DNA from: Candidatus Methanomethylophilaceae archaeon
Lineage (GTDB): Archaea > Thermoplasmatota > Thermoplasmata > Methanomassiliicoccales > Methanomethylophilaceae
DNA length: 64,000 nucleotides
NCBI GenBank assembly: GCA_944322255.1
Contig: CALUOK010000009.1
Coordinates: 1 to 64,000 of the forward strand
Reading direction: 5' to 3'
Numbering within the stretch: position 1 is the first letter of the stretch; every line of letters starts with the position of its first letter. Under the pieces are notes generated by a model. The model saw only the letters and a program-made list of their open reading frames with translations. It had not been told where the DNA came from and ran no database searches. The position numbers were made by a program, and so were the translations under genes. Below are positions 36,042 through 50,755 of the stretch, piece by piece.

Positions 36042-37733
36042 ATGGACCGCAAGCATGCTATCAAGAACTTCTTCAGAATCATGGAGCAGGAGCCAACCGA
36101 GGCTTGGACCAAGCATCTGAACTACCTGCAGACCTCTCTTCTGAACTTCTCCGAAAAGGAGACCGAGTTCAACGCCAACATGGTGTACGACATGTACACA
36201 GAGTTGAACCGTTTCGAGGACACAGAGGGAAGGCCCCTGCGCAATCTCATGGATACCATGAAGGTGTATGAGAAGCGTGCTTCCACATTCACAGAGAGTC
36301 AGAGGGATCATTTCGTGCACTCTGTCAACGTGTTCCTTCTGGGTCTCCAGATCTACATGGGCAGCAAGGAGTTCAGAAAGATCTTCGAGGAATCCGATCC
36401 AGAGACGACGTTCAACAACCCTCACGAGCGCTTCCTGTTCGTATGGGGGCATGCAGCCCTTTTCCATGACATCGGCTACCCCATCGAGATCGCCTCCAAC
36501 CAGGCAAAGACGTTCGCCCGCACTATAGAAGGGATTGGTAGCACAGGCCCTGATCGCAGCACCAACGTGTCCCTGTTCGTGTGGAACTTCGACGCCATCT
36601 CCAACGTCCCTGCCGAAGTTTGGGTCGGAGCAGGGGAGAACATCGATCTGGTGGGTGTGCTGGCCAGACGCATATCCGAGAGAATCGGAACGGACCCGGA
36701 GGATGTCCGTGAACTCATATCGGGCTATGTGGCAACAATGCGCGATGCGAGGTTCGTCGATCACGGGTTCTACAGTGCAATGATTCTTCTGCGTTCCATG
36801 GCAACGTCCATGCAGGCCGCAGGATACACGAGCACCCGTTTCGATGACGAGATCGTCGAAGCCGCCGCCGCGATACTGCTGCACAACATGTACCGGGGCG
36901 TCTTCACCAGCAACAGGTACACATTCAACTGCAAGCCCATGGAAGTCCGCTGGTTCCCAGTCGCGTTCCTTCTGATCCTCTGTGACGAACTCCAGGACTG
37001 GAACAGGAAGAAGTACGGGATTAAGACAAAGGATGCTGTCTATCCGGACAACAGCCGTGCTTCCCTGGACAATGGCGTCTTCACGATCAACTACTACACC
37101 GCGGACAGTGCCATATGCTCCACCTTCGTGGGTGACAAGGTCGCCTTGCTCGGGACGCTTCTGAATCTGAAAAGCATCTTCGACGATTTCCGTGTCACAT
37201 GCTCCTGCGACAGATCGGCCGATCTGCTAATGGCCTCACTGGAAGATACTGTCGGAGAAGATTTCCCGCGTCCGATGATGGAGCGCATGGAGGAGATAGC
37301 CAAGGCCATCCATGCCGACTACAACCGCAGACGTCGCATGGAGAACCCCGATGAGCCTCTGGAGTACCCAACATGGGATGGGCTCCCACAGGACCTCAAG
37401 TACTCCAACATGAGCCAGGCCATCGCCATCCCGGACAAGCTCAATGCCATCGGCTGTCACATAGGGGAACCTGGACAGGGTATGGAGGTCGATTCCTTCA
37501 CGCCGGAGGAGACCCTTCTGATGGCGATGATGGAGCACGACCGCTGGAGGGCGGAGCGCGAGTCGAACGGATGGATCTGGGGCCCGCAGAAGGATGTGGA
37601 GAGACGCATCTCCCCATACATAGCCGACTGGGACAGGATCCCGAAGGATATCCAGAAGTACGATATCGAGGCGGTGGAGAACATCATCCCTCTTCTAGAT
37701 CACATCGGGTTGAAGGTGCTCAGGAATGAGTGA
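36042..37733 (+). CDS. HD-domain phosphohydrolase fused to RyR domain
   Basis: A 563-residue protein. Residues about 85-320 look like an HD metal phosphohydrolase: His90/His93 (RDHFVHSV), His142-Asp143 (AALFHDIGYP), His241 (VDHGFYSA) and Asp315 (ILCDELQDW). Residues about 450-560 are a RyR domain (ryanodine-receptor-type repeat), with MEHDRWRAERESNGWIWGP (498-516) and ENIIPLLDHIGLKV. RyR domains of prokaryotes occur in nucleotide-signalling and conflict systems and are predicted ligand sensors; HD domains hydrolyse nucleotides or cyclic nucleotides. The gene overlaps the next by 8 bases. A TATA-like AATATATCC (36003-36011) lies about 32 bases upstream, with AGGGGTAAG just before the ATG. Confidence 0.8.
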   Translation: MDRKHAIKNFFRIMEQEPTEAWTKHLNYLQTSLLNFSEKETEFNANMVYDMYTELNRFEDTEGRPLRNLMDTMKVYEKRASTFTESQRDHFVHSVNVFLLGLQIYMGSKEFRKIFEESDPETTFNNPHERFLFVWGHAALFHDIGYPIEIASNQAKTFARTIEGIGSTGPDRSTNVSLFVWNFDAISNVPAEVWVGAGENIDLVGVLARRISERIGTDPEDVRELISGYVATMRDARFVDHGFYSAMILLRSMATSMQAAGYTSTRFDDEIVEAAAAILLHNMYRGVFTSNRYTFNCKPMEVRWFPVAFLLILCDELQDWNRKKYGIKTKDAVYPDNSRASLDNGVFTINYYTADSAICSTFVGDKVALLGTLLNLKSIFDDFRVTCSCDRSADLLMASLEDTVGEDFPRPMMERMEEIAKAIHADYNRRRRMENPDEPLEYPTWDGLPQDLKYSNMSQAIAIPDKLNAIGCHIGEPGQGMEVDSFTPEETLLMAMMEHDRWRAERESNGWIWGPQKDVERRISPYIADWDRIPKDIQKYDIEAVENIIPLLDHIGLKVLRNE

Positions 37734-39696
37734 AGCCCGCAAGTGGGACGACGGTCTGGACGTTCCGATAATGGTGTCCGTCACGGGCCATGTGGATCTG
37801 GTGGACGAGGAGGTCCCAGGAATCAGGGAGAAGGTCAGGAGGTTCCTCGAGAACCTCAGGCGCGAGTACCCCAACACCCGTGTGATCGTCATGTCGGCAC
37901 TCGCCAGAGGTGCAGACCTGCTCGTGTCGGAGGAGGCTCTGGACATGAACATCCATGTGGCGCCGGTGCTCCCGATGCCAATGGCCGAGTACAGGGGGAC
38001 CATCGGGGATCCAGATGCTCTTCGCAGATTCGATGCTGTCCTGTCGAACCCGCTCACGTACACGCCCTATCTTCTGGAGACGGAGTCGACCGATGAGAGG
38101 GACAGCTTCAGGAACCTGTCATCATTCCTGATATTCAACTCCCACATCATGCTCGGTCTGTGGGACGGGAGGGAGTACGACCGCAACGGTGGTACCTACG
38201 ACACCCTCCGTATGGCCTACAGCGGAGTGGACGCGGGAATCCGTGCCAGATACCTCGACACCGTGGTCCGTTCCAGGAAGGGCTCGGACAGGGTCCGTTA
38301 CCTGGACTCCGCCGAGGACTGTCTGATATACCGTATAGCAGTGGGCAGGACGCTCTCGGAGGACCAGCTGAGGGAACGCGGATGCGCTGATCCGGGCAGG
38401 ATGGTGTCCGGGGACGGGTACATCGTTCCGCAGATGGTCAGCTACGATCTGGATCAGGATTCGCTGTTCGAGGCGGACATGTTCCCGACCATCCCTCCCA
38501 TGTACGATTCGGCGTTCAGGCGCATGGATGCGATGAACAGGGACATGGGCGTCGAGGTAAGGGGTGCTGACGTCGTGTACAAGCCCGGGTCGGTGGCGGA
38601 GCTGACCGCCGGACACGAGCAGCGCGAGTCGAGATTCTACCTCCTGGACACAGACGGGGTGTCGGAGGACGTATGCAGGTATATCGAGGAGGTCAAATCA
38701 AAAGGCGTCATGGATGCCGCGGCTGACAGGTACCACGTCGCGGACCAGATGGCTCTCGGATATCAGAATCGCAGTTTCAGCAGGATTCACACGATGATCA
38801 TGGTCGCCGTCCTCACCAGCCTGTCATTCAGCGTGTTCATCCTCACCGGCGGGTCCCTGATAGTCAACCTGATCTACACGGTGCTGATGCTTGCAGGGAT
38901 ATTCCTGTCGAGGATGCATGCCCGTCGCAAGACGTATTCCAAGTTCATAGAGTACCGCGCGCTGGCAGAATCGATGCGCGTGGAGTACTACCGCGGCCTC
39001 ATGGGGTCCAGGGAGCCAGTCCCGGAGCTCTGCTACGGATACATGAAGAACGAGCTCTTCTGGATCAGAGGGGTTCTTAAGGCTTGGAACTCCAATTTTC
39101 TGAACGATTACGAACGTGTCACAGCGATCGAAGGCTATGAAGGCAAGGCCATGGCCATAGCGGAGAGCTGCTGGATGGCTGGCCAGAAGCGCTATCATGC
39201 ATCCAAGAGAGTCAAGAACGAGAGGCTCTACCGCCGCAACTTCGGGATCTCGAAGATACTGGTCAGCGCAACAACAGCCATTTCCGCCGCACTGATAGTC
39301 ACGATGGCCGTGTTTCCGAGCATCCTGGGGCAGACAGTGACCACGGTGGATCCGGTGTATGCGGGAGGAACATGTCTTATCCACGGTCTGGACATCACCA
39401 TGTCCACTGTCATCAGAATCGTGATGATCGCACTGGTGGCTCTCACCTCCTATGAGTCCATGGGTTCCAGCCAGATACATGGCGGCACCCCGGAGCAGAT
39501 CGATGCCAAGAGACAGATGTTCGCCATCGCCGAGATGCGTATGAGGGAGGCCGAAGACCCCGAGGTCCGCAGGGAGATTCTGTGGGAGCTCGGCGACCAA
39601 TGCATCGATGAGATGAACGACTGGGTCTTCGAGCACAAGGCTAAGGATTTCAAGGGTGGGACCCTGAATGCGAATCCCATGGATACGGATGCGTGA
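37726..39696 (+). CDS. SLOG nucleotide-sensor domain fused to four-TM (SLATT-like) membrane region
   Basis: A 656-residue protein. The N-terminal Rossmann-like SLOG domain spans about residues 12-200: SVTGHVDL (18-25), VIVMSALARGADLLVSEEAL (53-72), VLPMPMAEY (81-89) and LGLWDG (143-148). Membrane segments lie at about 354-373, 377-395, 510-533 and 560-576, with YRALAESMRVEYYRGL (410-425) between the pairs, a pattern like SLATT (DUF4231) proteins. SLOG domains bind nucleotide-derived ligands and SLATT proteins are predicted pore-forming effectors, so this could be a ligand-gated membrane effector. The RyR partner gene overlaps upstream. Domain calls are by eye; residues 200-340 are unassigned. 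Confidence 0.75.
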   Translation: MSEARKWDDGLDVPIMVSVTGHVDLVDEEVPGIREKVRRFLENLRREYPNTRVIVMSALARGADLLVSEEALDMNIHVAPVLPMPMAEYRGTIGDPDALRRFDAVLSNPLTYTPYLLETESTDERDSFRNLSSFLIFNSHIMLGLWDGREYDRNGGTYDTLRMAYSGVDAGIRARYLDTVVRSRKGSDRVRYLDSAEDCLIYRIAVGRTLSEDQLRERGCADPGRMVSGDGYIVPQMVSYDLDQDSLFEADMFPTIPPMYDSAFRRMDAMNRDMGVEVRGADVVYKPGSVAELTAGHEQRESRFYLLDTDGVSEDVCRYIEEVKSKGVMDAAADRYHVADQMALGYQNRSFSRIHTMIMVAVLTSLSFSVFILTGGSLIVNLIYTVLMLAGIFLSRMHARRKTYSKFIEYRALAESMRVEYYRGLMGSREPVPELCYGYMKNELFWIRGVLKAWNSNFLNDYERVTAIEGYEGKAMAIAESCWMAGQKRYHASKRVKNERLYRRNFGISKILVSATTAISAALIVTMAVFPSILGQTVTTVDPVYAGGTCLIHGLDITMSTVIRIVMIALVALTSYESMGSSQIHGGTPEQIDAKRQMFAIAEMRMREAEDPEVRREILWELGDQCIDEMNDWVFEHKAKDFKGGTLNANPMDTDA

Positions 39697-41035
39697 CGAC
39701 ATGTACGGGGGAATGTGTCCGACTTGCAAGAGGGACCTGACCGACGGGGTCTGTCTATACTGCATCTCAGCCGCCGAGCTCCGTGACGCGATGAACTACA
39801 CCCCGCATCGTATCAGGATACCAGACGACTGCGTCGTGGAGATGACAGTCCCCCTGGATGACAGCGAGAAAGCATCGGATTCGACACGCGATCGGCAGTC
39901 CGAGCAGGCACCGGAAGACGGGTCGAGAACGTCTCCCGACATCCCCCTGGTGACCTGTGTGATGCAGGACGAGGTCATCACCAACACGTCACTCAATCCC
40001 GTGATAGGGGTGCTGGACGTGGACAACGCTGGGGATGCGGCCCTCCTCACCGTCAACCTCCTTCTGGAGGACAGGAGGGTGTACAGGAGCACATTCCGTG
40101 CACAAGGTGGCAGGAGCCGTCTGGACCTCCGCCTGAGTGCGAGCCTGATACGTTCATCGGATTCCAACATCCGTACCGTCACTGTCATCGTGGAGGCGGA
40201 TGGCCGTGAAATCGCCCGTCAGACCTCGGCCATAAGGGTCAGGGCGGTGAATGATCTGCCTTTGACGAGGATGCAGGACGAGATCCCCCGCTGCATCACA
40301 CCCTCATGCAGGGAGATAAGGGAGATGCTGGCAGGGGACGGGCCGATCATGGCCGCCCTCCAGCGGATCCGCCCCGATGACATCAGAGGTCTCGAGATGG
40401 GCTGCATAGACAAGGTCTCCGATGAGTTGACAACGGACTCACTGCAGGCGTACCAGTTCAGCAATCCCGTCGAGAGGTTGGCCAATGTCATGGCACAGGC
40501 CATGGCGGTTTTCAACGCCCTGTCCGAGATGGGGCTGAAGTACGTCGATTTCACATCATCGGAAGGGTCGGGCCAATATGAGTTCCAGAGGGTGAACCTT
40601 CCCCGCGAGACCCTGAGGGAGAAGAGGGGCGTATGCCTGGACTTCTCCTGTCTGGTCGCATCGGTTCTGGAAGGGATGGGTCTGAACCCGGTACTCGTCT
40701 TCCCACCCGGACATGCGATGGTCGGGGTCATCGTGTCATCGGACAGGATCCCGTATGTCGGTAACGTCGATTACAGCAGGTGCAGGTTCATCCATGAGAT
40801 GGAGGTGGAGACGGGTGACGGTCACAAGGACAGGATCCAGGCGGTGTTCATGGAGTCGACACTCATCGGAAGAAGCAGTTTCGCATATTCTCTGAAGAGA
40901 GCGGACGAGAAGATCGAGGAGTCCATGAAGGCCATAATGTCGAAGCGTAGGTACACGGTGGTGTACTTCAGGCGTCGCTACGGCGGGGTGCTTCCGCTCG
41001 AATCGTCGCCCCGTGACATCGGAGGGAGGAAATGA
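39689..41035 (+). CDS. Transglutaminase-like protein with N-terminal zinc ribbon
   Basis: About 448 residues. An N-terminal four-cysteine zinc ribbon (CPTCKRDL...CLYC) is followed by a low-complexity linker, a beta-sandwich (about 90-200: VLDVDNAGDAALLTVNLLLEDRRVY) and a transglutaminase-like cysteine protease fold. The putative triad is Cys316 (REKRGVCLDFSCL), His342 (FPPGHAMVGV) and Asp361 (YVGNVDYSR), numbered from ATG 39689. In this superfamily such domains cleave or crosslink peptides. The start is uncertain: 39689 overlaps the previous stop, 39701 is the next ATG. It overlaps the Sel1 gene by 4 bases. Confidence 0.72.
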   Translation: MRDDMYGGMCPTCKRDLTDGVCLYCISAAELRDAMNYTPHRIRIPDDCVVEMTVPLDDSEKASDSTRDRQSEQAPEDGSRTSPDIPLVTCVMQDEVITNTSLNPVIGVLDVDNAGDAALLTVNLLLEDRRVYRSTFRAQGGRSRLDLRLSASLIRSSDSNIRTVTVIVEADGREIARQTSAIRVRAVNDLPLTRMQDEIPRCITPSCREIREMLAGDGPIMAALQRIRPDDIRGLEMGCIDKVSDELTTDSLQAYQFSNPVERLANVMAQAMAVFNALSEMGLKYVDFTSSEGSGQYEFQRVNLPRETLREKRGVCLDFSCLVASVLEGMGLNPVLVFPPGHAMVGVIVSSDRIPYVGNVDYSRCRFIHEMEVETGDGHKDRIQAVFMESTLIGRSSFAYSLKRADEKIEESMKAIMSKRRYTVVYFRRRYGGVLPLESSPRDIGGRK

Positions 41036-42048
41036 CGATTGATTCGGAATCCGAATTCGATGTGGGGATGGATCTGTTCACAGGAGCAGGCGGAACCTAC
41101 GACACCGTGAAAGCGTACACGGTCTTCGCGAAAGGGGCTGCAAGAGGGCATTCGAAATCGCAGGCCATGTGCGAGATAATGAAGGCAATGTCCGCTGGTA
41201 AGGCATCCTATGCGGACCGGGAGGTCGTGAAGGCGGCCATGGGCCGCGGAATCTCAGGAAGGCATGTCGAATGGATCCTCGGAAAGATTCTGGAACTGGG
41301 CATAATAGATAAACCGTCCAATGCCGAGGCCCTTGACATGTACCGCAAGGCGGCGGACAAAGGGTCATGCATGGGCGTGTACGAACTCGGCAGCAGGACC
41401 AGGTCCAGAACAGACCTGGCCAGAGCCGTGGACATGGGGTGTGTGCCTGCCATGGGCTGTCTTGCCGACATCCTTCTCGGAGGGGATGAGGGGGATGTCC
41501 GCCGTGCGGAGGAGCTCTATCGCGAGGGCCTATCCCGTGGATCCGAGGATTGCGGTGTGGGGCTCGCATGGATGAGGGTGGCGGGTCTGGACTCGCGTAG
41601 CGAGGGGATCGATCCGTCCGGCCTGCTGGAGGGGCCGGCGGAGAAGGGGGACGTTATCGCGCAGTGCCTTCTGGGCTTCATCTACCGTTACGGGGTCTGT
41701 GTCCCGACATCCTATGAAAGGGCCCTGTACCATTTCCTGCAGGCATCGGACCAGGGGTCGTCATTCGCACGGTGCCAGTTGGGTCTGATGTACGAGTTCG
41801 GGGTCGGCGTCGAGGAGTCTGTGGAGATGGCCCGTTACTTCTACAAGCAGTCCAGTACCGGCCTGGCCCGTTGCAGGCTGGGTCTGATGTACGAGGAAGG
41901 AATCGTAGACGAAAACGAGTTGGAGTTCACCACTCTGAACGATCTGACTCTCAGAATGTACCTGATGAACAATCTCGAGGAGCTGGCGCAGTACCGCATT
42001 GCCGTGATGCGCGAGGACGGCAGATACGTCTGTATTGACTGCCACTGA
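41032..42048 (+). CDS. Sel1-repeat protein, main part (probably frameshifted)
   Basis: 338 residues of Sel1-type helical repeats (variants of A-x-x-x-Y-x-x-A-A-x-x-G), for example NAEALDMYRKAADKGS, RRAEELYREGLSRGS, YERALYHFLQASDQGSSFARCQLGLMYEFGVGVEES and ELAQYRIAVMREDGRYV. Such solenoids mediate protein binding. The reading frame stops 10 residues into a repeat (GRYVCIDCH), and the rest of that repeat continues at once in the +1 frame (42035 onward). I read the two pieces as one gene broken by a one-base change or a sequencing error. Starts ATGA-overlapped with the transglutaminase-like gene. Confidence 0.75.
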   Translation: MTIDSESEFDVGMDLFTGAGGTYDTVKAYTVFAKGAARGHSKSQAMCEIMKAMSAGKASYADREVVKAAMGRGISGRHVEWILGKILELGIIDKPSNAEALDMYRKAADKGSCMGVYELGSRTRSRTDLARAVDMGCVPAMGCLADILLGGDEGDVRRAEELYREGLSRGSEDCGVGLAWMRVAGLDSRSEGIDPSGLLEGPAEKGDVIAQCLLGFIYRYGVCVPTSYERALYHFLQASDQGSSFARCQLGLMYEFGVGVEESVEMARYFYKQSSTGLARCRLGLMYEEGIVDENELEFTTLNDLTLRMYLMNNLEELAQYRIAVMREDGRYVCIDCH

Positions 42049-42349
42049 TTACTACAAAGAGGCCGCAGAGGCGGGGAACCCCATCGCGATGTACCGTCTG
42101 GCCCGGACATATATGGAGTCCCGTTCGAAACGCAAGCACGCCTTCAGGCTCTGCTCTCAGGCGGCGGACTGCTGTCTGCCGGAAGCCGAGATGATGATGG
42201 CCGAGTTCTATGCGGAGGGGATCGTGGTCAGGAGAAGCAAGGACATCGCCAGGATGTGGTTGGAGCGCGCCAAGATACATGGGCATCCGGACGCTGATAG
42301 GATGATGCAGAAGTTGGAGTCCAAAGGAATCCTGGACCGTCTGAGGTGA
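42035..42349 (+). pseudogene. Sel1-repeat protein, C-terminal continuation in +1 frame
   Basis: This frame supplies the missing half repeat (ATDYYKEAAEAGNPIAMYRLA) and two further ones (RKHAFRLCSQAADCCLPEAEMMMAEFYAEGIVV; KDIARMWLERAKIHG), ending the solenoid. The only start is TTG 42035 with no ribosome site. The in-frame upstream stop is at about 42004, so any frame change must lie between there and 42048. No homopolymer run marks a slippery site. Confidence 0.65.
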
Positions 42350-42497: not shown

Positions 42498-43226
42498 ATG
42501 TTCCTAGATCCAAACGAGGACCCTCAGAGTCGCAGGCAGATCCGTGAGGCGAAGGTACGTACCCATCTGGATCTGGTGCTCTCGCCGTCGAACTACATGT
42601 TCTCATGCCGTGAGGTCGGTATCAATGTGCCGAGAGGCACGTCTTATGACAAGTTCCAGGGATGGTTGCCCGAGTATCTAGGGGGACTTTCCGATGAGGA
42701 CCTGGTGGCTCTCATGAACAGACTGGGCCTTACCGTGGTGTCAACTTCGGACAGATGGAACGGCGTCTTCATAATCCACAGCAGTAGGGACGAGAGGTTC
42801 GCGGAATCCATAAGGTTCGGTCTGAACTGCATCAACATCCCGGACACCAACATCTACTGCTCGTCCATAGAGGAGACCGGCACCACGCTAGGGGACTCTT
42901 TCTGCGATATAATTAAGAAATGTCTGCGCAACGCCATCCTGGTCATATGCATCATGAGCGACCACAGTGTCGCCAGCAAATACTGTCTGCAGGAGATGGG
43001 TGCCGTTTTCGTCATGGACACGCCGATGATCCCGGTGCTCGTAGGTGGATTCGACCCCCAGGCGATGCCGGGGTTCATAGACAACAGCCGTTACCAGGCG
43101 ACCACGATATCGTCTGCGGAGTCGGCGGAGATATTCCTCGGGCAGGTATGCAGGAAGTGCGGAATCGAATGCAGCCATGCGGATCTGCTGAACGGTGTCA
43201 GAGCAATACTCACAGGAGGGAGATGA
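42498..43226 (+). CDS. TIR domain protein
   Basis: A 242-residue protein. Residues 1-85 are a helical region of unknown type; residues about 88-200 form a TIR domain: GVFIIHSSRDERFAESI (89-105), NIPDTNIYCSSIEETGTTLGDSF (box 2 area), ILVICIMSDHSVASKYCLQEMGAV with candidate catalytic Glu166, and IPVLVGGFDP. TIR domains of this group cleave NAD and make signalling nucleotides in bacterial and archaeal defence. A 148-base gap precedes it. The stop overlaps the eIF2B-like gene region, so the two are probably co-translated. Confidence 0.85.
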   Translation: MFLDPNEDPQSRRQIREAKVRTHLDLVLSPSNYMFSCREVGINVPRGTSYDKFQGWLPEYLGGLSDEDLVALMNRLGLTVVSTSDRWNGVFIIHSSRDERFAESIRFGLNCINIPDTNIYCSSIEETGTTLGDSFCDIIKKCLRNAILVICIMSDHSVASKYCLQEMGAVFVMDTPMIPVLVGGFDPQAMPGFIDNSRYQATTISSAESAEIFLGQVCRKCGIECSHADLLNGVRAILTGGR

Positions 43227-43228
43227 AG

Positions 43229-44176
43229 ATGGGAAAGAACGTGGACATGCTGATAGACGACATAGTCGCTGCGCGTCTGAAGGGGGCATCGCCGGTGGCC
43301 ATACGCACCGCGGAGGCAATACTCGCCGACACGGAGGCGGAGTTCGATTCCGGCACATCCAGGGGCCATCTCAAGATGACCGTCCAGAGGCTCGGTGCCG
43401 AGGTCATCAAATCGAGGCCGACCAACACCTCTCTCCGCAACGCGGTGAAGAACACCCTCTATAAGATAGAGAAGATCGACGATGAGGATGATGAGAAGGT
43501 CCTGGAGGTCATACGCGGTAATGTGGCGGCATTCACGGAGACTGTCAACACCGCCGCCGACAGGATAGCCAAGCTGGGTGCAAACATAATCCGTGATGGA
43601 ACGACCATTCTGACGGGAAGCTACAGTTCGATGGTGAAAGGCATCCTCGACACGGCCTACAATGTCCTGGGCAAGGACATCCAGGTCTATGTCACGGAGA
43701 CGAGGCCCCGCTACCAGGGAGTGAAGATGGTAAGGGAGCTGCTCAACCTGGGCATCCCGACCACGCTCATAGTGGACTCATCCGCCCGGCATCTGATGAA
43801 GGACGTGGACCTGGTCATAATAGGGGCGGACACCGTGAGCTCGGACGGGTCGGCGATCTCGAAGATAGGTGCATCCCTCATCGCGCTGGCCGCCCATGAG
43901 GCGAGAGTGCCGCTGTACGTGGCCACCCCAACCTTCAAGTTCTCCGAGGAGACCCTTTCGGGGGTCATGATCGCCATCGAGGAGGCCGCCGCATCCCAGA
44001 TAGTCGACGGCAGCGGTCTGGAGGATTGCATGGACAATCCTCTGTTCAAGGTCAGGAATCCGGCGTTCGACGCCACACCGCCCGAATACATCCGCGGTCT
44101 CATCACGGAACTGTACATAATGTCCCCGTATTCTGTCGGGGACTATCTTGCCAAGATGTCGGGGGTCATAGACTGA
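43229..44176 (+). CDS. eIF-2B alpha/beta/delta-like protein (ribose 1,5-bisphosphate isomerase relatives)
   Basis: A 315-residue protein of the family that includes aIF2B and ribose-1,5-bisphosphate isomerase. Seen: SRPTNTSLRNAVKN, DGTTILTGSYSSMVKGIL, VYVTETRPRYQGVKMVREL, IVDSSARHLM and LVIIGADTVSSDGSAISKIGA. The isomerase uses a cysteine in the loop after strand TILT; here that position is Ser131, while the catalytic-type Asp201 remains. So isomerase activity is doubtful. ATG 43229 has AGGAGG upstream at good spacing; ATG 43223, overlapping the TIR stop, is the alternative. Its place between a TIR gene and a HAD phosphatase gene is unusual. Confidence 0.82.
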   Translation: MGKNVDMLIDDIVAARLKGASPVAIRTAEAILADTEAEFDSGTSRGHLKMTVQRLGAEVIKSRPTNTSLRNAVKNTLYKIEKIDDEDDEKVLEVIRGNVAAFTETVNTAADRIAKLGANIIRDGTTILTGSYSSMVKGILDTAYNVLGKDIQVYVTETRPRYQGVKMVRELLNLGIPTTLIVDSSARHLMKDVDLVIIGADTVSSDGSAISKIGASLIALAAHEARVPLYVATPTFKFSEETLSGVMIAIEEAAASQIVDGSGLEDCMDNPLFKVRNPAFDATPPEYIRGLITELYIMSPYSVGDYLAKMSGVID

Positions 44177-44850
44177 ACCTATCCGGCATCCGTGCAGTCA
44201 TCTTCGATATGGACGGCACCCTCATCGACACGGAGAAGCTCAACGTCAGGTTCTGGATCCAGGCGGGCAGGAACATGGGGTTCGACATCTCCGAGGACGA
44301 GGTCTTGCACATCCGCAGCTTGGATTCACGTCTCGTACGCGAGTATCTGGAGAAGAACCATCCCGGGATGGATTTTCAGGCTGTGAGGGAGGAACGTCGC
44401 AGGCTCATGAAGGGGCATGTGGATTCGGAGGGTCTCGAACTGAAACCCGGAGTGAACAGAATCCTCGATCTGCTTGCCGACAAGGGAATCAAAACAGCCG
44501 TCGCAACAGCATCCCGGCCCGATCATGCCAACGGCTACCTGGACATGTTAGGCATCCACGGGAAGTTCGAGAGGATAATATGCACATCATCGGTGGAGAA
44601 CGGGAAGCCCAGTCCCGACGTGTATCTCTACGCATGTGAGCAGATCGGGGAGAGGCCCCAGGACTGTCTGGCGGTGGAGGATGCCCCCAACGGTGTCAGA
44701 TCGGCGTTTGCTGCGGGATGCAGGGTGGCCTTCGTGCCGGATCTTACGGAAGCGGATGATGAGATACGCTCGAAGGCGGATGTGTTTTCCAGTCTGGAGG
44801 ATCTGGCGGAGTGCTTCGATCGGTTACGGACTCGATGTGACAGGTTCTAG
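44173..44850 (+). CDS. HAD-superfamily phosphatase, beta-phosphoglucomutase type
   Basis: About 225 residues. Motif I VIFDMDGTLIDTE, motif II VATASRPDHA, motif III lysine in NGKPSPDVYLYA, motif IV VEDAPNGVRSA. The helical cap follows motif I, as in phosphoglycolate phosphatase and beta-phosphoglucomutase. The substrate is unknown; a sugar phosphate is likely. No ATG, GTG or TTG lies at the natural N-terminus. The best-placed start is CTG 44173, overlapping the previous stop (CTGA); the next ATG is inside motif I. Translation may depend on coupling to the eIF2B-like gene. Confidence 0.8.
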   Translation: MNLSGIRAVIFDMDGTLIDTEKLNVRFWIQAGRNMGFDISEDEVLHIRSLDSRLVREYLEKNHPGMDFQAVREERRRLMKGHVDSEGLELKPGVNRILDLLADKGIKTAVATASRPDHANGYLDMLGIHGKFERIICTSSVENGKPSPDVYLYACEQIGERPQDCLAVEDAPNGVRSAFAAGCRVAFVPDLTEADDEIRSKADVFSSLEDLAECFDRLRTRCDRF

Positions 44851-44912: not shown

Positions 44913-46901
44913 ATGGCCACCAGGGATGAAATCACCTCTATTGCGAGCACTGTCAAGGATTCGCTTCTTGATTCTTGGAGCGAAGGCGGCTGTTTCACAG
45001 ACGAGGACAAAATGAGGAACAAGGGGATGATGTCCGAAGCTATCGGACTTACATCCATGCTTTTGATAGGAGTTTCATTCGATGATGAACCATCGTTTTG
45101 GAACGACAGCGATAAGGCGAAGTATTCAGAGATTGTCGCCAACTGTGTGGATTATCTTTACTCCGAGGTCTCCAACAAAGGATTCACCGCGGAACCGTTG
45201 GTAACGGCAAAGGCATCCTCTATGCTGTTCAATAAAGATTCTGGATATGTGGATGCCATCACATGGGTCCTTTCATCCATGATTCTGACGCGGTACTCCC
45301 AGAGAAAGGGCATAATCGAGATCTCACAGCAGACAAAGGAGCAGATGATGGAGCTGATTGCCAAAGCCTTCGGCATGCTTCTCAGCTCCCAGCGTGATGA
45401 CGGAACATGGGGATTCATGACCGATCCGAAATCCAAGATCGCCATCTACTTCACATATTCGGCAAATGCGACGATTGCAGACTTCTTCGACTACATCGTG
45501 GGGGAGATCGAGAGTGTCGAAGTGGACTCCGAGAAGGCGGGTTTCCAGTACAGGGACGAGGAGGTCTTGGACTACCTCAATTCCTCCCTGGGGTACGATG
45601 TGGAGGTCCGTGCCTCAGAAGCCAGGAGGAAGACGGCGATATGGTTGGTCCGTGAATGCATCCCGTTGCTCTCGAAGTTATCCGAATGCATATACAAGGA
45701 GGGCCAGGACTACTCGGACATAGGGATATGGGAGCAGCGCGCACGCATCAACGACGAGTATTACGACGATGTGAACTTCATTCAGCTCTACTACGTGTAC
45801 TACATAGTAGACATGCTCACGCTGACATATTCCGATGATGTCTTCAAGGAGATCATCGCAGATCCTGAGAAACTGAAGGACCTGGCCTCGAAGTACGCAA
45901 CGCGTATGCCGAAGCCGGAAATCAGATACTTCTTCAAGGAGATTCCCCCGTCCGAGCTGTACGAACAGATGTACAAGGCGATCATAGAGCAGTCCATCCA
46001 AGCTGCCAGAAACAACTTCATGATAGCTTCCAGGACCGGTAACGAGTTCTGGAGCAGCGAACAATCCGAGCTGAGGGTCCAATGGGACCATGAGGATGAG
46101 GACGTTCACTACAACATCCAGGGTGCACTGAACAAAGCGCGTGACATCACAGATCCCGCACTCGTACCCATGTCGCTGAGAGCGAACACATGTTTCTGCT
46201 ACTACATCTCGAACGAGAAGGATTTCTCGCTGGATAGGTTGTATCAGATGATCATTGACTCCAGGGCCAAGGAAGACGATGGCGGATGCCGCATCAACCT
46301 CTGGGACGATATGAGCTACAACCTGCAGGTCACCGAACGTTGTATAGAGGCCATCGTGGACTACCATGATTACATCCTCAAGTTCGGAGAAGACGATGCA
46401 CAGGAGGTCACCAAACACGCTGAGGTCGCGCAGGTCATAAGAGAAGTCTCAAAATCCGATCTAGACCTGGCCGTTGAGAAGAAGATAGAGGAGTATCTCG
46501 CAGAGCACAATGTCTCCACCCCGGGCGTGAACTGCAGTGAGGCCCCTGTGGCCACGGCGACCATGTCCCAGGAGGCGTTCAACGAGATGGCAGAGTGCTA
46601 TCTCAGGGATCTTTTCGTGGACTTGGACAACGTCGGCGACATCTATTCCGCCTTCGACGAGGAGCATTTCCTCCGCAAACTTCTGGACGCATGGTGCAAA
46701 CTGAAGTCTCAGGCGTACATGAGGGAGATCAAGGAACAGCGCGATCTCGAACAGAAGGAGTACAGCACAGGTGTTGCCGAGAGGAACCTGGTCCACTTCC
46801 TGGATAAGAAGAGGAAACTGGACGTCCGTATGATCGACGATTACGAGGATACCCGTGCCGACCTCGTCGAGATTTACGAGAATATGAAGACACGCAGGTG
46901 A
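44913..46901 (+). CDS. Large uncharacterised protein with QW-like (alpha/alpha toroid) motif
   Basis: A 662-residue soluble helical protein with no certain family. Residues 158-168 (SSQRDDGTWGF) match the Q-x-x-D-G-x-W motif of squalene cyclase and prenyltransferase toroids; a weaker copy is near 454-490 (EDDGGCRINLWDDMSYNL, then TERCIEAIVDY). Helices with alternating Trp, Tyr and acidic residues fit such a barrel. The C-terminal third (about 490-662) is charged and may be coiled coil. It starts a four-gene unit with an ATPase, a TIR protein and a cysteine-cluster protein, 4 bases before the ATPase gene. Known toroid proteins include cyclases and sensors; its role here is unknown. Confidence 0.65.
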   Translation: MATRDEITSIASTVKDSLLDSWSEGGCFTDEDKMRNKGMMSEAIGLTSMLLIGVSFDDEPSFWNDSDKAKYSEIVANCVDYLYSEVSNKGFTAEPLVTAKASSMLFNKDSGYVDAITWVLSSMILTRYSQRKGIIEISQQTKEQMMELIAKAFGMLLSSQRDDGTWGFMTDPKSKIAIYFTYSANATIADFFDYIVGEIESVEVDSEKAGFQYRDEEVLDYLNSSLGYDVEVRASEARRKTAIWLVRECIPLLSKLSECIYKEGQDYSDIGIWEQRARINDEYYDDVNFIQLYYVYYIVDMLTLTYSDDVFKEIIADPEKLKDLASKYATRMPKPEIRYFFKEIPPSELYEQMYKAIIEQSIQAARNNFMIASRTGNEFWSSEQSELRVQWDHEDEDVHYNIQGALNKARDITDPALVPMSLRANTCFCYYISNEKDFSLDRLYQMIIDSRAKEDDGGCRINLWDDMSYNLQVTERCIEAIVDYHDYILKFGEDDAQEVTKHAEVAQVIREVSKSDLDLAVEKKIEEYLAEHNVSTPGVNCSEAPVATATMSQEAFNEMAECYLRDLFVDLDNVGDIYSAFDEEHFLRKLLDAWCKLKSQAYMREIKEQRDLEQKEYSTGVAERNLVHFLDKKRKLDVRMIDDYEDTRADLVEIYENMKTRR

Positions 46902-46905
46902 TCTC

Positions 46906-48171
46906 ATGGTCCAGTGCTACACATTCTACTCCTACAAGGGAGGTTCGGGTCGTTCCACTACACTCCTAAACACGGTCAAGTGTCTCATAAAGGATCTCGA
47001 TGCCAATCCGGAGCATCCCATCCTCGTCGTGGATGCCGATCTGGAAAGCGCCGGACTCACATACTACTTCGGTTTTCAGGACAAATTCAAAGGTACCCTC
47101 AACACGGGGTCGGTCCTCAGTTCATACGAAGCTGTGTTCCAGAGCGATATGAGGGATGTCGTGTTCTCTCTGAAGAGACCGAACGACAAGCTCTACACCT
47201 GCAAAGGCTCGGAAGCATGGGGCGATCTGCAGAAACTCGATGCGAAGGATCCGTCCGGTGGTAGGAAGATCTCAGATGTGTTCAGCGGAATAAAGCTGTC
47301 CGGTAGGCACATCAGGATGCTCCGCAACATCATCGACGCCACGCTTCACAACAACAACAGGTATTTCTCCCATGGCAAATCGATATGGTCCTTGGTCAAC
47401 GATCTCAAGAAGATCCTGGACTCGGACATGGACGATGCGAAGAAATCCGAGGCCCTGTCTGATGCTGTGGTGCAGTTCCTTCCCGCGATATCGTACATGG
47501 ATGTGTCCAAGTACTTCTGTGATGCCGACTCTCCGCTCGATTCCGGGACCGTAAGATTCCTGGGGACGGATGTGAGCAACGAGTCCAGGGTCACAAGGGC
47601 TGATGCAGAGGGGTCCATCTCCAGATTCCTTGATCTATGTGATTCATACGGCTACAGGGCAGTCGTATTCGACAGCGGTGCCGGAACCCAGGCAAGCGCT
47701 TACGTGCTGCACAGTGCATCAGACGTCATAGTGTACTGCATGCGTCCGACGTTGCAGTTCATAGACGGTACCTGGGACAACCTCTACAGATTCCAGGAGA
47801 TCCTGAGAAGCAATCTGAACGACGATCCCGAGAAGAAGAAGGTAATCCTGTTCCCCAACGCGGTTCCCGACGTCTCGGAGAGTGAAAAGCCGTTTTGCGA
47901 TTACAGCTTCAGATACATAGCCGATATGGCGGACACGTTCAGAGAGTTCGTGGACAGCACCTTCTGCACATACGATGAGTGTCTGCATGAAGTCCCCCTG
48001 TTCAAGTGGCGTGAGAAGATCCTCGGATGCACCGACTACCATGATTCAGCCAACATTCCCGAACTGTCTGAGGCAGTCCGGAAGTACTCCTTCGAGAAAG
48101 AGATCGGAGACCTTGAGAGATACACCAAGGTGTATTCGAAGCTGGCCGAACGCCTGATACACAACGCGTGA
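46906..48171 (+). CDS. KGGxGR-motif MinD/ParA-like ATPase
   Basis: A 421-residue P-loop ATPase. The deviant Walker A reads SYKGGSGRSTTLLN (residues 9-22), with the signature lysine at 11 and Arg16 where ParA/MinD have Lys. Walker A' is VVDADLESAGLTYYFG (43-58) and the later strand VVFDSGAGTQ has the Walker B aspartate. Between them lies an insertion of about 150 residues. ATPases of this KGGVGR variant type are associated with TIR and other conflict-system genes. It is 4 bases from the genes on either side, so complex formation is likely. No DNA-segregation partner (ParB, centromere repeats) is seen. Confidence 0.82.
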   Translation: MVQCYTFYSYKGGSGRSTTLLNTVKCLIKDLDANPEHPILVVDADLESAGLTYYFGFQDKFKGTLNTGSVLSSYEAVFQSDMRDVVFSLKRPNDKLYTCKGSEAWGDLQKLDAKDPSGGRKISDVFSGIKLSGRHIRMLRNIIDATLHNNNRYFSHGKSIWSLVNDLKKILDSDMDDAKKSEALSDAVVQFLPAISYMDVSKYFCDADSPLDSGTVRFLGTDVSNESRVTRADAEGSISRFLDLCDSYGYRAVVFDSGAGTQASAYVLHSASDVIVYCMRPTLQFIDGTWDNLYRFQEILRSNLNDDPEKKKVILFPNAVPDVSESEKPFCDYSFRYIADMADTFREFVDSTFCTYDECLHEVPLFKWREKILGCTDYHDSANIPELSEAVRKYSFEKEIGDLERYTKVYSKLAERLIHNA

Positions 48172-48175
48172 TGAC

Positions 48176-50755
48176 ATGGCATCCCTGTATGACACAATCG
48201 CAGACAGGAATCTGGTCACACCATCTCTCTCCAGACTCCTTTTCGGTGATTCGAAATCGAGATCCGCGGTGCTCAAGCAGACCCTGTCGCTGCCCAAGAC
48301 CATGCACGAGGTCTGTCTGTTCTATTCGTCGCTGATACAGATGAATCTGCTCAAGACGGCTTTCGACAGGGACTCGAAGGTAATGGACCTCTGCGATGAC
48401 CGCTTGGCAAGGACTATCGGTGCCATCTGGGGTGGGGGAGGCACCGACCTCTCAGAGGACATGAGGGTCTTTTCATTCCTCAGGGACTGCATATCGACCG
48501 GTGTCCTCCCGGGTGCGTTCAACGAGGATTCCGAAACGATGATCGGACGTGCCAATGCCTATTACAACACGTTCACGAGAAACGGCATGATGATGAATGT
48601 GGAGGACTGCAAAGCGGATTTCATCGGACTCATCGAGTCCATGCCGATGTTGGCTAAGATCGGATATGATGAGGAGCTGCAGTGTCTCGTCTCCGATGCG
48701 GGCTACTCCATGCCACTCTCTCCGTTTTTCACGATGACCGGTGATGGCCTGTACATCACGACATCCGTTGTTCGTGGAGAACAGAACAACAGTCTCAGGC
48801 TCAAGCAGGTCAAGTACAATTCGACGGACATCCGGGCAGTTCGCAGGAAGGAGGATCTCTGTGTCGCCAACGACGAGTATCTCCATGCACTGTGCCTGGC
48901 TTTCGGTATAGACACGTATTGGTATCCTCAGGAGGAATATCTGGGCACATGCATGTTCGTCGTCCGGTTGTCGGAGGTCCTGTCCAAGGCCGTTCTCAAC
49001 AATCTCCGTAACGACCTAGGTGTCCTGAGTCAGATAAACGGCCCCCTCAAAGGCTACTTCCATGGAAACGCCGACATGGTGAGGACCATCAACAATGTGG
49101 GATACCCGATAGACGGCAACGGTCACGGCAATGGGAACAAGCAGGCACTGCAGAACCTGTTCATGGGGCTGATCATCACATACGGCGCTTTCGTCACCAC
49201 ACACAATCTCATCTTGGAGAACAACGTGCTTGACAAGCTCGGAGATTCGGATCCCAATAAGACGACGATCAACCGGGACAGAGCGAAGGTGATCTTCGAG
49301 GACATCGTCAAGGTGATAGTCGAATCAGGATACTCTTCGGGAGATGCAGAGAAGGAGGTGGCTCTGTGCTACTCCCGTATCGACGCGCATCTGGCCCAGC
49401 TCGCCCGCATTGTTCCTCCGGGTTCCGCGTCGTACCTGGTCAGAAAGGATCACATCTGCGCCGAACAGAAGGCGGCCACGGTGTTGGAGTTGCTCGGTCT
49501 CCAGAATTCGGACCTTTTCGCAGACAAGGAATCCATGCTGTCCGTACGTGACTATTTTGACATGCTCATAAACAACAGTGTGCCTCTCGATGAGATGATC
49601 CGGGGCATAACACGGTTCCTGATCGCGTTCTACTCCAGGTTCGGGGGAGAGCATGGTGAGATCAGGGACGATTCCGATCCTGTCGAATGCTTGGAGACGT
49701 TCAGGGACTTCTGCATCTCCACCGAAAAGACGTTGAACGATGTCGGTTCGAACGTGATAAAGGAGCAGATCGGCCGCAACATCTGTGACATAGACATCCT
49801 CAACAACTACATCGAGAACTTCAGGAGAGTGGACAACTGGAAGGGGGACGGCGTCAGGACAATGAGTCGCGGCTACTTCTTCATCAGCTACGATCATGAC
49901 GATTCCGATTTCGTCAAGAGCTGTGTCAGACAGTGGAGGTCGATGGGGTTCAACATACACTTCGATGGCACCCAGTTCGAAGCCGGAGACAACTGGTCCA
50001 CCCGCGCCATCGAGGAGATCAGAGGGGATGACTGCCAGGGCGTCATACTGTTCCTGAGCGAGTACTCCGCCACAAGCTCTCCCTGTTCGGAGGAGATCAA
50101 GGCCGCCCACAGTGTGGCTTCGAACAGATTCGACAACGACTACCGCAGAGTCAACCAGTTCCTCACGGTAATAAACATGGAGGAGACGCCCATAGGCCAG
50201 TGGACGGCGGATCTTCTGAGCACCTGCGAAGGCGAGGAGCTAGTCTGTGTGAACACCGTTCGCAGATACATCCACGAGGACAAGATCTTCATCAGTCGCT
50301 ACGATACGAACATGATCAACACGGTGGCGGGGGTCATGGACACCCGGAACACCGAGAAGCTAAGCAGGACTCTGGATCTGGACACGATGTCCGAAGCCGA
50401 GTATGCGTTCGCCTCGTATCTCGCATTCCTAAAGACAGGGAAGTTCTGGAGATTCACCAGCGACCAGTCGGAGGAAATGAGAGCGGTGTTCGATGCGGGA
50501 TGGTCAGACACCAACCATTGCGTCTATCCGCTCACGGTATCCGTCAAGGAAGCCAGGATCAAGAGGGACAGCGTGACCATCCTCGGATACGAAGTGCTGA
50601 ACGGGAAGAGCGACATGTCCGAAGGACGTGTGATGATATCTTCGGACTCGATAAAGACGGGAGACTACTACTGCATACCGGACATCCGCAGTTGCGGGGA
50701 GTGCGGGGAGTGGATGGTCAATCCTCTTCTGGTGTCGTTCGAGAGCATCAGGTGA
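48176..50755 (+). CDS. Multidomain protein with internal TIR domain
   Basis: An 859-residue soluble protein. Residues 1-560 are not recognised; they are mixed alpha/beta with a Gly/Asn-rich stretch (GYPIDGNGHGNGNK, about 305-318). Residues about 566-700 form a TIR domain: GYFFISYDHDDSDFVKSCV (566-584), GFNIHFDGTQFEAGDNW, GVILFLSEYSATSSPCSEEI with candidate catalytic Glu639 or 640, and FLTVINME. Residues 700-859 are a further unknown region ending in CGECGEWMVNPLL. A TIR NADase embedded in a large sensor-like protein and coupled to an ATPase suggests a regulated effector. 4 bases after the ATPase gene. Confidence 0.75.
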   Translation: MASLYDTIADRNLVTPSLSRLLFGDSKSRSAVLKQTLSLPKTMHEVCLFYSSLIQMNLLKTAFDRDSKVMDLCDDRLARTIGAIWGGGGTDLSEDMRVFSFLRDCISTGVLPGAFNEDSETMIGRANAYYNTFTRNGMMMNVEDCKADFIGLIESMPMLAKIGYDEELQCLVSDAGYSMPLSPFFTMTGDGLYITTSVVRGEQNNSLRLKQVKYNSTDIRAVRRKEDLCVANDEYLHALCLAFGIDTYWYPQEEYLGTCMFVVRLSEVLSKAVLNNLRNDLGVLSQINGPLKGYFHGNADMVRTINNVGYPIDGNGHGNGNKQALQNLFMGLIITYGAFVTTHNLILENNVLDKLGDSDPNKTTINRDRAKVIFEDIVKVIVESGYSSGDAEKEVALCYSRIDAHLAQLARIVPPGSASYLVRKDHICAEQKAATVLELLGLQNSDLFADKESMLSVRDYFDMLINNSVPLDEMIRGITRFLIAFYSRFGGEHGEIRDDSDPVECLETFRDFCISTEKTLNDVGSNVIKEQIGRNICDIDILNNYIENFRRVDNWKGDGVRTMSRGYFFISYDHDDSDFVKSCVRQWRSMGFNIHFDGTQFEAGDNWSTRAIEEIRGDDCQGVILFLSEYSATSSPCSEEIKAAHSVASNRFDNDYRRVNQFLTVINMEETPIGQWTADLLSTCEGEELVCVNTVRRYIHEDKIFISRYDTNMINTVAGVMDTRNTEKLSRTLDLDTMSEAEYAFASYLAFLKTGKFWRFTSDQSEEMRAVFDAGWSDTNHCVYPLTVSVKEARIKRDSVTILGYEVLNGKSDMSEGRVMISSDSIKTGDYYCIPDIRSCGECGEWMVNPLLVSFESIR

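What the first reader, a model, noticed from the sequence alone, without database searches (positions are those of the whole stretch)
42498..44850. TIR gene coupled to an eIF2B-like protein without the catalytic cysteine and to a HAD phosphatase
The eIF2B-like protein has the isomerase-family loops and Asp201 but Ser131 where ribose-1,5-bisphosphate isomerase has its cysteine. It lies directly between a TIR protein, whose family can release ADP-ribose-type products, and a sugar-phosphate-type phosphatase. The trio could process or sense ribose phosphates made from NAD.
Basis: partly seen in the sequence, partly recalled or inferred. Interest (0 to 1): 0.62.

Follow-up and report, generated by a model that had tools for sequence, protein, structure and literature searches.

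The report
TIR cassette with cysteine-less sugar-phosphate isomerase
In a few methane-producing archaea, a predicted NAD-cutting immune-type protein always comes with a sugar-phosphate isomerase relative that has lost its catalytic cysteine but kept its phosphate-binding residues, which suggests that an old metabolic enzyme was turned into a sensor in what looks like a virus-defence gene set.

Summary
TIR (42498-43226), eIF2B-like (43223-44176) and HAD (about 44173-44850) are real, overlapping, same-strand genes. The eIF2B-like protein is a third paralogue: the genome also has a normal ribose-1,5-bisphosphate (R15P) isomerase beside RuBisCO and AMP phosphorylase, and an MtnA. It has Ser at the catalytic Cys, as do its only two close relatives found, both in other Methanomassiliicoccales genomes and both beside the same TIR. 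All 71 other family members compared have Cys. TIR and Ser-type genes occur in exactly the same 3 of 102 genomes of the archaeal family. All three loci also carry a SLOG-SLATT membrane protein and RyR domains, so the trio is part of a larger predicted cADPR-signalling cassette. The HAD is adjacent in all three loci, but its tree says it was recruited more than once. R15P phosphate ligands are kept; Cys, one sugar-binding Asn and the AMP site are lost. The published engineered Cys-to-Ser mutant binds R15P without converting it. Best reading: a catalytically dead sugar-phosphate sensor in a TIR-based, probably antiviral, system. The biochemistry is untested.

The parts
36042..37733 (+). HD-type phosphohydrolase with a C-terminal RyR domain; first gene of the cassette
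   Evidence: Pfam RyR 1.9e-7; HD-like FHDIGYP and DHGF motifs and homology to L067:11131-13107; H499/W502/D541 at the spacing of the cADPR-glycosidase RyDEP residues H75/W78/D117 (PMC13232231)
37726..39696 (+). SLOG (nucleotide-sensing) plus SLATT-type transmembrane protein, predicted membrane effector
   Evidence: Pfam SLATT_3 and DUF4231, NCBIfam SLATT_3; SLOG part: top PDB fold match YpsA 2nx2, then DprA and TRPM2 (SLOG part of model pLDDT about 70-85, whole model low); four hydrophobic segments; homologues in both other cassettes
39668..41035 (+). transglutaminase-like protein related to anti-phage ProA; present only in this copy of the cassette
   Evidence: Pfam DUF553; NCBIfam antiphage_ProA 7.2e-25 over part of the model, below cut-off; absent from L067 and L068
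41032..42048 (+). Sel1-repeat protein; a second Sel1-like frame follows at 42035-42349 (possible frame break); only in this copy
   Evidence: Pfam Sel1 8.5e-23; frames
42498..43226 (+). SpbK-like TIR protein: N-terminal helical domain (about residues 9-75) plus TIR (88-242), conserved Glu166 at the usual TIR NADase position
   Evidence: TIR_2 1.2e-8; PADLOC spbK 2.8e-19; AlphaFold model with four N-terminal helices plus TIR, top PDB match SpbK 9phb; 58% and 43% identical in the two other cassettes
43223..44176 (+). IF-2B family protein, derived from R15P isomerase, lacking the catalytic Cys
   Evidence: IF-2B 1.2e-67; TIGR00511 247 bits against cut-off 314 while the genome's own R15P isomerase scores 391; Ser clade 100/99 on the tree
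43619..43621 (+). codon AGC, Ser133 at the position of the catalytic Cys (Cys135 of PH0208)
   Evidence: Ser in 3/3 of the clade, Cys in 71/71 others
43829..43831 (+). codon GAC, Asp203 at the position of catalytic Asp204 of PH0208, kept
43859..43861 (+). codon TCG, Ser213 where R15P isomerase and MtnA have the sugar-binding Asn (Asn214 of PH0208)
44173..44850 (+). HAD phosphatase of the beta-phosphoglucomutase / sugar-phosphatase group; start uncertain (CTG at 44173 overlapping the upstream TGA)
   Evidence: HAD_2 2.3e-34; closest PDB relative the MtlD phosphatase domain; D11, D13, T111, K144, E168, D169 conserved in all homologues

Best explanation
The locus is a mobile, probably antiviral, NAD-signalling cassette. 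Steps, all inferred from domains unless stated. (1) A SpbK-like TIR protein senses infection through its N-terminal helical domain and cuts NAD+ to ADPR and/or cADPR. (2) A SLOG-SLATT membrane protein reads an ADPR-type signal and perturbs the membrane; RyR domains (one on an HD phosphohydrolase) bind or hydrolyse cADPR-type signals and limit the response. (3) The eIF2B-like protein, a descendant of R15P isomerase, no longer catalyses isomerisation but still binds a ribose (bis)phosphate, probably R15P or a 1-substituted ribose-5-phosphate. It acts as an oligomeric metabolite sensor that gates or reports on the TIR step, much as eukaryotic eIF2B-alpha became a sugar-phosphate sensor. (4) The neighbouring HAD phosphatase removes the ligand or a related sugar phosphate and resets the sensor. 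What the sequences show directly: gene order and co-occurrence, Ser for Cys in all three copies, retained phosphate ligands, lost AMP site, and the presence of AMP phosphorylase and R15P isomerase in the same cells.
For: TIR and Ser-type IF-2B occur in exactly 3 of 102 family genomes, the same three. Adjacency and order are conserved in all three despite different flanks. The Ser clade is monophyletic (100/99) within the R15P-isomerase half of the family. Kept: Arg65, Ser135, Gln165, Asp203, Lys214, Lys239. Changed: Cys to Ser, Asn to Ser, AMP-site residues. Published PH0208-C135S is inactive yet binds R15P, Kd 13.8 uM, while C135A does not bind R15P (PMC5789824). eIF2B-alpha binds sugar phosphates in the ancestral catalytic pocket (PMC8187479). 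TIR matches SpbK, an NADase with a 4-helix N-terminal domain making ADPR and N1-cADPR (PMC12847820). RyR residues H/W/D are conserved at the spacing of the cADPR glycosidase RyDEP. SLOG fold match. TIR-SLATT pairs are a known antiviral theme (PMC9503650). AMP phosphorylase is present in all three genomes, beside R15P isomerase and RuBisCO in this one. The HAD subfamily was recruited to this position more than once. Nonsynonymous change is lower than synonymous in IF-2B (pN/pS 0.30-0.38).
Against: Only three copies are known, all in draft assemblies of one archaeal family. No biochemistry exists for any member. Asn214 to Ser and Arg22 to Lys (2 of 3) could weaken R15P binding or change the ligand. 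SLOG-SLATT also occurs without the trio in two relatives. The HAD is convergent rather than co-directional in one genome, and its subfamily is found elsewhere in unrelated settings. The SLOG-SLATT model has low overall confidence. Synonymous sites are near saturation, so the pN/pS values are rough. Nothing shows physical contact between TIR and the eIF2B-like protein.
Confidence: 0.5

Rival explanations
1. The eIF2B-like protein is still an enzyme, with changed chemistry or substrate: it acts on a TIR-derived ribose phosphate using Ser/Asp and the HAD removes a phosphate next, giving a short clean-up or recycling pathway for NAD-derived ribose phosphates.
For: Asp203, Lys214 and the phosphate ligands are kept; HAD catalytic motifs are intact; the HAD lies next to it in all three genomes.
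Against: The same Cys-to-Ser change abolished activity in PH0208 (PMC5789824); the sugar-binding Asn is also lost; Cys is invariant in the 71 other homologues compared.
Confidence: 0.18
2. The eIF2B-like protein is a decoy or modulator of host metabolism: it forms mixed hexamers with the host R15P isomerase, or mimics it, so that the AMP-to-RuBisCO pathway is blocked or guarded during the TIR response.
For: It is derived from R15P isomerase, and all three hosts have R15P isomerase and AMP phosphorylase. R15P isomerase is a hexamer whose AMP site bridges three subunits (PMC5789824); the AMP-site residues are lost here.
Against: Only about 37% identity to the host isomerase; no interaction data; no known precedent for TIR systems.
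Confidence: 0.17
3. Passenger genes: the locus is a defence island where the eIF2B-like and HAD genes hitchhike without a shared function with the TIR.
For: The island holds several other defence-like genes (a second TIR gene at 48176-50755, ProA-like 39668-41035), and HAD homologues occur in unrelated settings.
Against: Same neighbours in three genomes with different flanks; ATGA-type overlap in two of them; perfect TIR/IF-2B co-occurrence in 102 genomes.
Confidence: 0.1

Closest known systems
[quoted passage not shown]
   Same: IF-2B fold, best sequence match (PDB 3vm6, 3a11, 5yfs); phosphate ligands and catalytic Asp kept; tree places it in this half of the family
   Different: Catalytic Cys is Ser, sugar-binding Asn is Ser, AMP-activator site lost, score below the family cut-off, separate locus from RuBisCO and AMP phosphorylase
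Eukaryotic eIF2B-alpha regulatory subunit
   Same: Same fold, catalytic Cys lost, published sugar-phosphate sensor using the old active site (PMC8187479)
   Different: Cys is replaced by Ala/Gly there, not Ser; 1-phosphate ligands are absent there but largely kept here; only distant sequence match
SpbK antiphage TIR protein of Bacillus subtilis
   Same: N-terminal helical domain, linker and TIR; best PADLOC and PDB match
   Different: SpbK works as a single gene; here the TIR comes with IF-2B-like, HAD, RyR and SLOG-SLATT partners; N-terminal domains share no detectable sequence
Thoeris (TIR signal maker plus SLOG-containing ThsA effector)
   Same: TIR plus a SLOG-containing predicted effector at one locus
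   Different: SLOG is fused to a SLATT-like membrane module, not SIR2; TIR matches ThsB models only weakly; extra IF-2B, HAD, RyR and HD parts
TIR-SLATT gene pairs and RyR-domain cADPR enzymes (RyDEP)
   Same: TIR near SLATT is a described theme (PMC9503650); the cassette RyR domains keep the ligand/catalytic His, Trp and Asp spacing of RyDEP (PMC13232231)
   Different: RyDEP is a phage counter-defence protein; here RyR sits in the host cassette, and the phosphate-contacting His is Ser

Membership tests
Ribose-1,5-bisphosphate isomerase (TIGR00511) | score above the curated family cut-off (314 bits) | tested here: not met
   247, 244 and 242 bits for the three Ser-type proteins; the genome's own isomerase scores 391
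Ribose-1,5-bisphosphate isomerase (TIGR00511) | catalytic Cys135 and Asp204 (PH0208 numbering) | tested here: not met
   Asp kept, Cys is Ser in 3/3; Cys in 71/71 other homologues
Ribose-1,5-bisphosphate isomerase (TIGR00511) | ligands of the two phosphates and the sugar | tested here: inconclusive
   Arg65, Gln166, Lys215, Ser137, Lys240 kept; Arg22 is Lys in 2/3; Asn214 is Ser in 3/3
Ribose-1,5-bisphosphate isomerase (TIGR00511) | R15P isomerase activity | not testable with these tools
   needs an enzyme assay
Methylthioribose-1-phosphate isomerase (MtnA) | family score and catalytic Cys | tested here: not met
   TIGR00512 141 bits against cut-off 279; Cys absent; a separate MtnA exists (L003)
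aIF2B-alpha (PRK08335, PH0440 type) | family score | tested here: not met
   148 bits against cut-off 339
SpbK-type TIR NADase | N-terminal helical domain plus TIR with catalytic Glu | tested here: met
   model has four N-terminal helices then TIR, best match SpbK, Glu166 invariant in all three copies
SpbK-type TIR NADase | NADase activity triggered by a phage portal protein | not testable with these tools
   needs an assay
Thoeris | ThsB TIR plus ThsA effector (SIR2-SLOG or another described type) | tested here: not met
   no SIR2 or Macro effector beside the TIR; weak ThsB scores; SLOG-SLATT instead
RyR-domain cADPR hydrolase/sponge (RyDEP-like) | His75, Trp78, His100, Asp117 pattern of RyDEP | tested here: inconclusive
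   His, Trp, Asp at the right spacing in all cassette RyR domains; His100 position is Ser (by spacing only)

The most novel reading that the evidence does not exclude
An archaeal TIR immune system is gated by a metabolic pseudo-enzyme: a Cys-to-Ser R15P isomerase that senses a ribose (bis)phosphate produced when NAD or AMP is broken down, with a dedicated phosphatase to switch it off. This would be a second, independent case, after eIF2B, of this enzyme family becoming a sugar-phosphate sensor in a stress response.
Probability: 0.3. Interest if true: 0.85.

Novelty: new variant of a known kind. Interest (0 to 1): 0.64.

Why it matters
TIR, SLOG, SLATT and RyR domains are known parts of NAD-derived immune signalling, but the literature searches here found no described system that includes an eIF2B/R15P-isomerase relative. 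If it is a sensor, it would tie antiviral NAD cleavage to pentose-phosphate metabolism in archaea. It would also give a testable parallel to the old question of why eukaryotic eIF2B was built from a sugar-phosphate enzyme: a naturally occurring counterpart of the engineered Cys-to-Ser mutant, kept by selection next to a TIR.

Tried and rejected
Housekeeping aIF2B or a redundant R15P isomerase: rejected because the genome has both normal isomerases elsewhere and the window protein misses their family cut-offs. TIR as a late insertion into an eIF2B-HAD pair: rejected; the pair was not found without the TIR. HAD as a cassette-specific orthologous member: rejected by the tree (an earlier tree with wrong reading frames was discarded, and searches failed part-way). 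Viral or plasmid origin: no close relative of TIR or eIF2B-like in IMG/VR, and no close eIF2B-like relative in plasmid or phage records. Wider species: only the same two other genomes plus one unrelated TIR (L078, Flexithrix, no IF-2B neighbour) among 84,980 species. SLOG-SLATT in G010 and G318: present without the trio; the HAD near G010's copy is unrelated. Promoter/terminator scan gave nothing above chance, and archaeal promoters are not covered by it.

Full report
What is there. The window lies on contig C9 of a 1.88-Mb archaeal genome; its close relatives in the public record are titled Thermoplasmatales archaeon AS10tlH2TH_373 and Methanomassiliicoccaceae archaeon UBA404. The TIR gene (42498-43226), the eIF2B-like gene (43223-44176) and the HAD gene (about 44173-44850) are real by Pfam. 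The first two overlap as ATGA. The HAD frame has no ATG, GTG or TTG between its far-upstream TTG at 44026 and its conserved core; a CTG at 44173 overlaps the upstream stop codon and is the likeliest start, by inference. The G290 homologue starts with a normal ATG about 10 bases after the eIF2B-like stop.

The missing cysteine. Against Pyrococcus R15P isomerase PH0208 (PDB 5yfs, aligned), the window protein keeps Arg65, Gln166, Lys215, Ser137, Lys240 and Asp204 (window Arg65, Gln165, Lys214, Ser135, Lys239, Asp203). It has Ser133 for Cys135, Ser213 for Asn214 and Lys20 for Arg22, and it loses the AMP-site residues Arg124, Asn209 and Asp290 (ligand list from PMC5789824). Two close relatives, G290 (69%) and G298 (53%), share the Cys-to-Ser and Asn-to-Ser changes. 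In 71 other IF-2B proteins of this phylum the Cys, Asn and Arg22 are invariant. The entries 3vm6 and 5yfs in the PDB comparison carry Ser at this position. For PH0208, the Cys-to-Ser mutant is inactive but holds R15P with Kd 13.8 uM, while Cys-to-Ala does not bind it (PMC5789824). So Ser is a published substitution that kills turnover and preserves binding. That this natural protein behaves likewise is inference, and the Asn change is a caution.

Not a housekeeping copy. The genome has three IF-2B genes. One, at C12:1475, passes the R15P isomerase cut-off (391 bits against 314) and is followed by a type III RuBisCO and an AMP phosphorylase. A second is MtnA. Nearly all relatives have just these two. 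The window copy scores 247 and fails. On a tree of 75 sequences the three Ser-type proteins form a clade (100/99) inside the R15P-isomerase half with a long stem, that is, a fast-evolving offshoot; its exact sister is not resolved.

Conserved cassette. In G290 (L067) the order on one strand is HD-RyR, RyR-SLOG-SLATT, TIR, eIF2B-like, HAD. In G298 (L068) it is RyR-SLOG-SLATT, TIR, eIF2B-like, with the HAD convergent. In the window the order is HD-RyR, SLOG-SLATT, a ProA-like transglutaminase protein, Sel1, TIR, eIF2B-like, HAD. The flanking genes differ: transposase-like genes and an inositol-monophosphatase gene in G290, HtpG and an AroA-like gene in G298 (flank names read from the translations). 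This fits a unit that moves. Across all 102 held genomes of the archaeal family, the TIR and the Ser-type eIF2B-like gene occur in the same three; if independent, the chance of this is about 1 in 170,000 (one over the number of ways to choose 3 of 102, ignoring shared ancestry). Neither was found in viral contigs, and in 84,980 species only the same two other genomes appeared.

The HAD is the weakest member. It is adjacent in all three loci, with intact HAD motifs, and belongs to a sugar-phosphatase group. But its subfamily is present in 9 of 102 family genomes, including settings beside a phenylacetate-CoA-ligase-like gene, an aminotransferase and others. The G298 cassette HAD is closest to a second HAD of G298 (72% against 46% to the other cassette HADs), and a tree holding the three cassette HADs together is rejected (AU p 5.8e-9; part of the G298 second copy is missing). 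So related HADs seem to have come to this position more than once, or were converted locally. Repeated recruitment is mild evidence for a shared function; it also means the HAD is not strictly part of the cassette's line of descent.

The partners. The TIR protein matches SpbK in PADLOC (2.8e-19). Its model has an N-terminal helical domain and a TIR whose best PDB match is SpbK. SpbK is an NADase with a 4-helix N-terminal domain that makes ADPR and N1-cADPR (PMC12847820). The neighbouring SLOG-SLATT protein has a SLOG fold (YpsA, DprA and TRPM2 matches) and about four hydrophobic segments. SLATT beside TIR is a described theme, with SLATT predicted to be an ADPR-regulated membrane effector (PMC9503650). 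RyR domains were recently shown, in phages, to cleave or sequester cADPR isomers (PMC13232231, preprint); the cassette's RyR domains keep the His, Trp and Asp at the published spacing but have Ser at the phosphate-contacting His (by spacing only). SLOG-SLATT also occurs without the trio in two relatives, so it is a reusable module.

Mechanism. My best reading is a TIR-based NAD-signalling defence with a metabolite input: the TIR makes ADPR or cADPR; SLOG-SLATT and RyR read and limit the signal; the eIF2B-like pseudo-isomerase binds a ribose (bis)phosphate and gates or reports; the HAD removes the ligand. A source of such a ligand exists in these cells: AMP, one product of ADPR breakdown, can be turned to R15P by AMP phosphorylase, present in all three genomes. 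The parallel with eIF2B-alpha, which binds sugar phosphates in the old active site (PMC8187479), is one of function, not membership. Shown by computation: positions, conservation, co-occurrence, residue changes, tree. Inferred: antiviral role, NADase activity, ligand, gating, HAD role.

Limits. Three loci, draft genomes, one archaeal family; models built from three-row alignments; synonymous sites near saturation; no interaction or activity data. Literature searches found no paper joining a TIR with an IF-2B relative, but only open-licence papers were searchable, and a key 2015 paper on nucleotide-centred conflict systems was not held.

Noticed in passing
window 44913-50755: Three same-strand genes right after the HAD: an unknown 662-aa protein, a KGGVGR-type ATPase and an 859-aa protein with a second, SAVED/TIR-like TIR domain; looks like another defence operon.
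   Followed up: partly
window 39668-41035: Transglutaminase-like protein with a partial match to the anti-phage protein ProA family (7e-25), inserted in this copy of the cassette only.
   Followed up: partly
window 41032-42349: Sel1-repeat gene followed by an overlapping second Sel1-like frame (42035-42349), possibly a frame break or assembly error.
   Followed up: no
L067:4096-5948: Next to the G290 cassette, convergent with the HAD: a gene with a TIR-like start and a DUF5919 match, overlapping an inositol-monophosphatase-family gene; a second pairing of a possible TIR-like protein with a sugar-phosphatase-type enzyme.
   Followed up: no
L100:9759-14279: In G318 a SLOG-SLATT protein follows a protein that looks like a membrane protein with a C-terminal RyR-like stretch, without any TIR or IF-2B; the RyR ligand residues differ there.
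   Followed up: partly
L002:1376-3597: Canonical R15P isomerase, type III RuBisCO and AMP phosphorylase lie in a row in this genome, so the archaeal AMP-to-RuBisCO pathway is probably complete.
   Followed up: partly
L099:12757-15825: In G010 a large protein resembling DUF4062-type NTPases sits divergently beside RyR-SLOG-SLATT; DUF4062 was recently reported as a TIR-like NADase family (PMC13174449).
   Followed up: no
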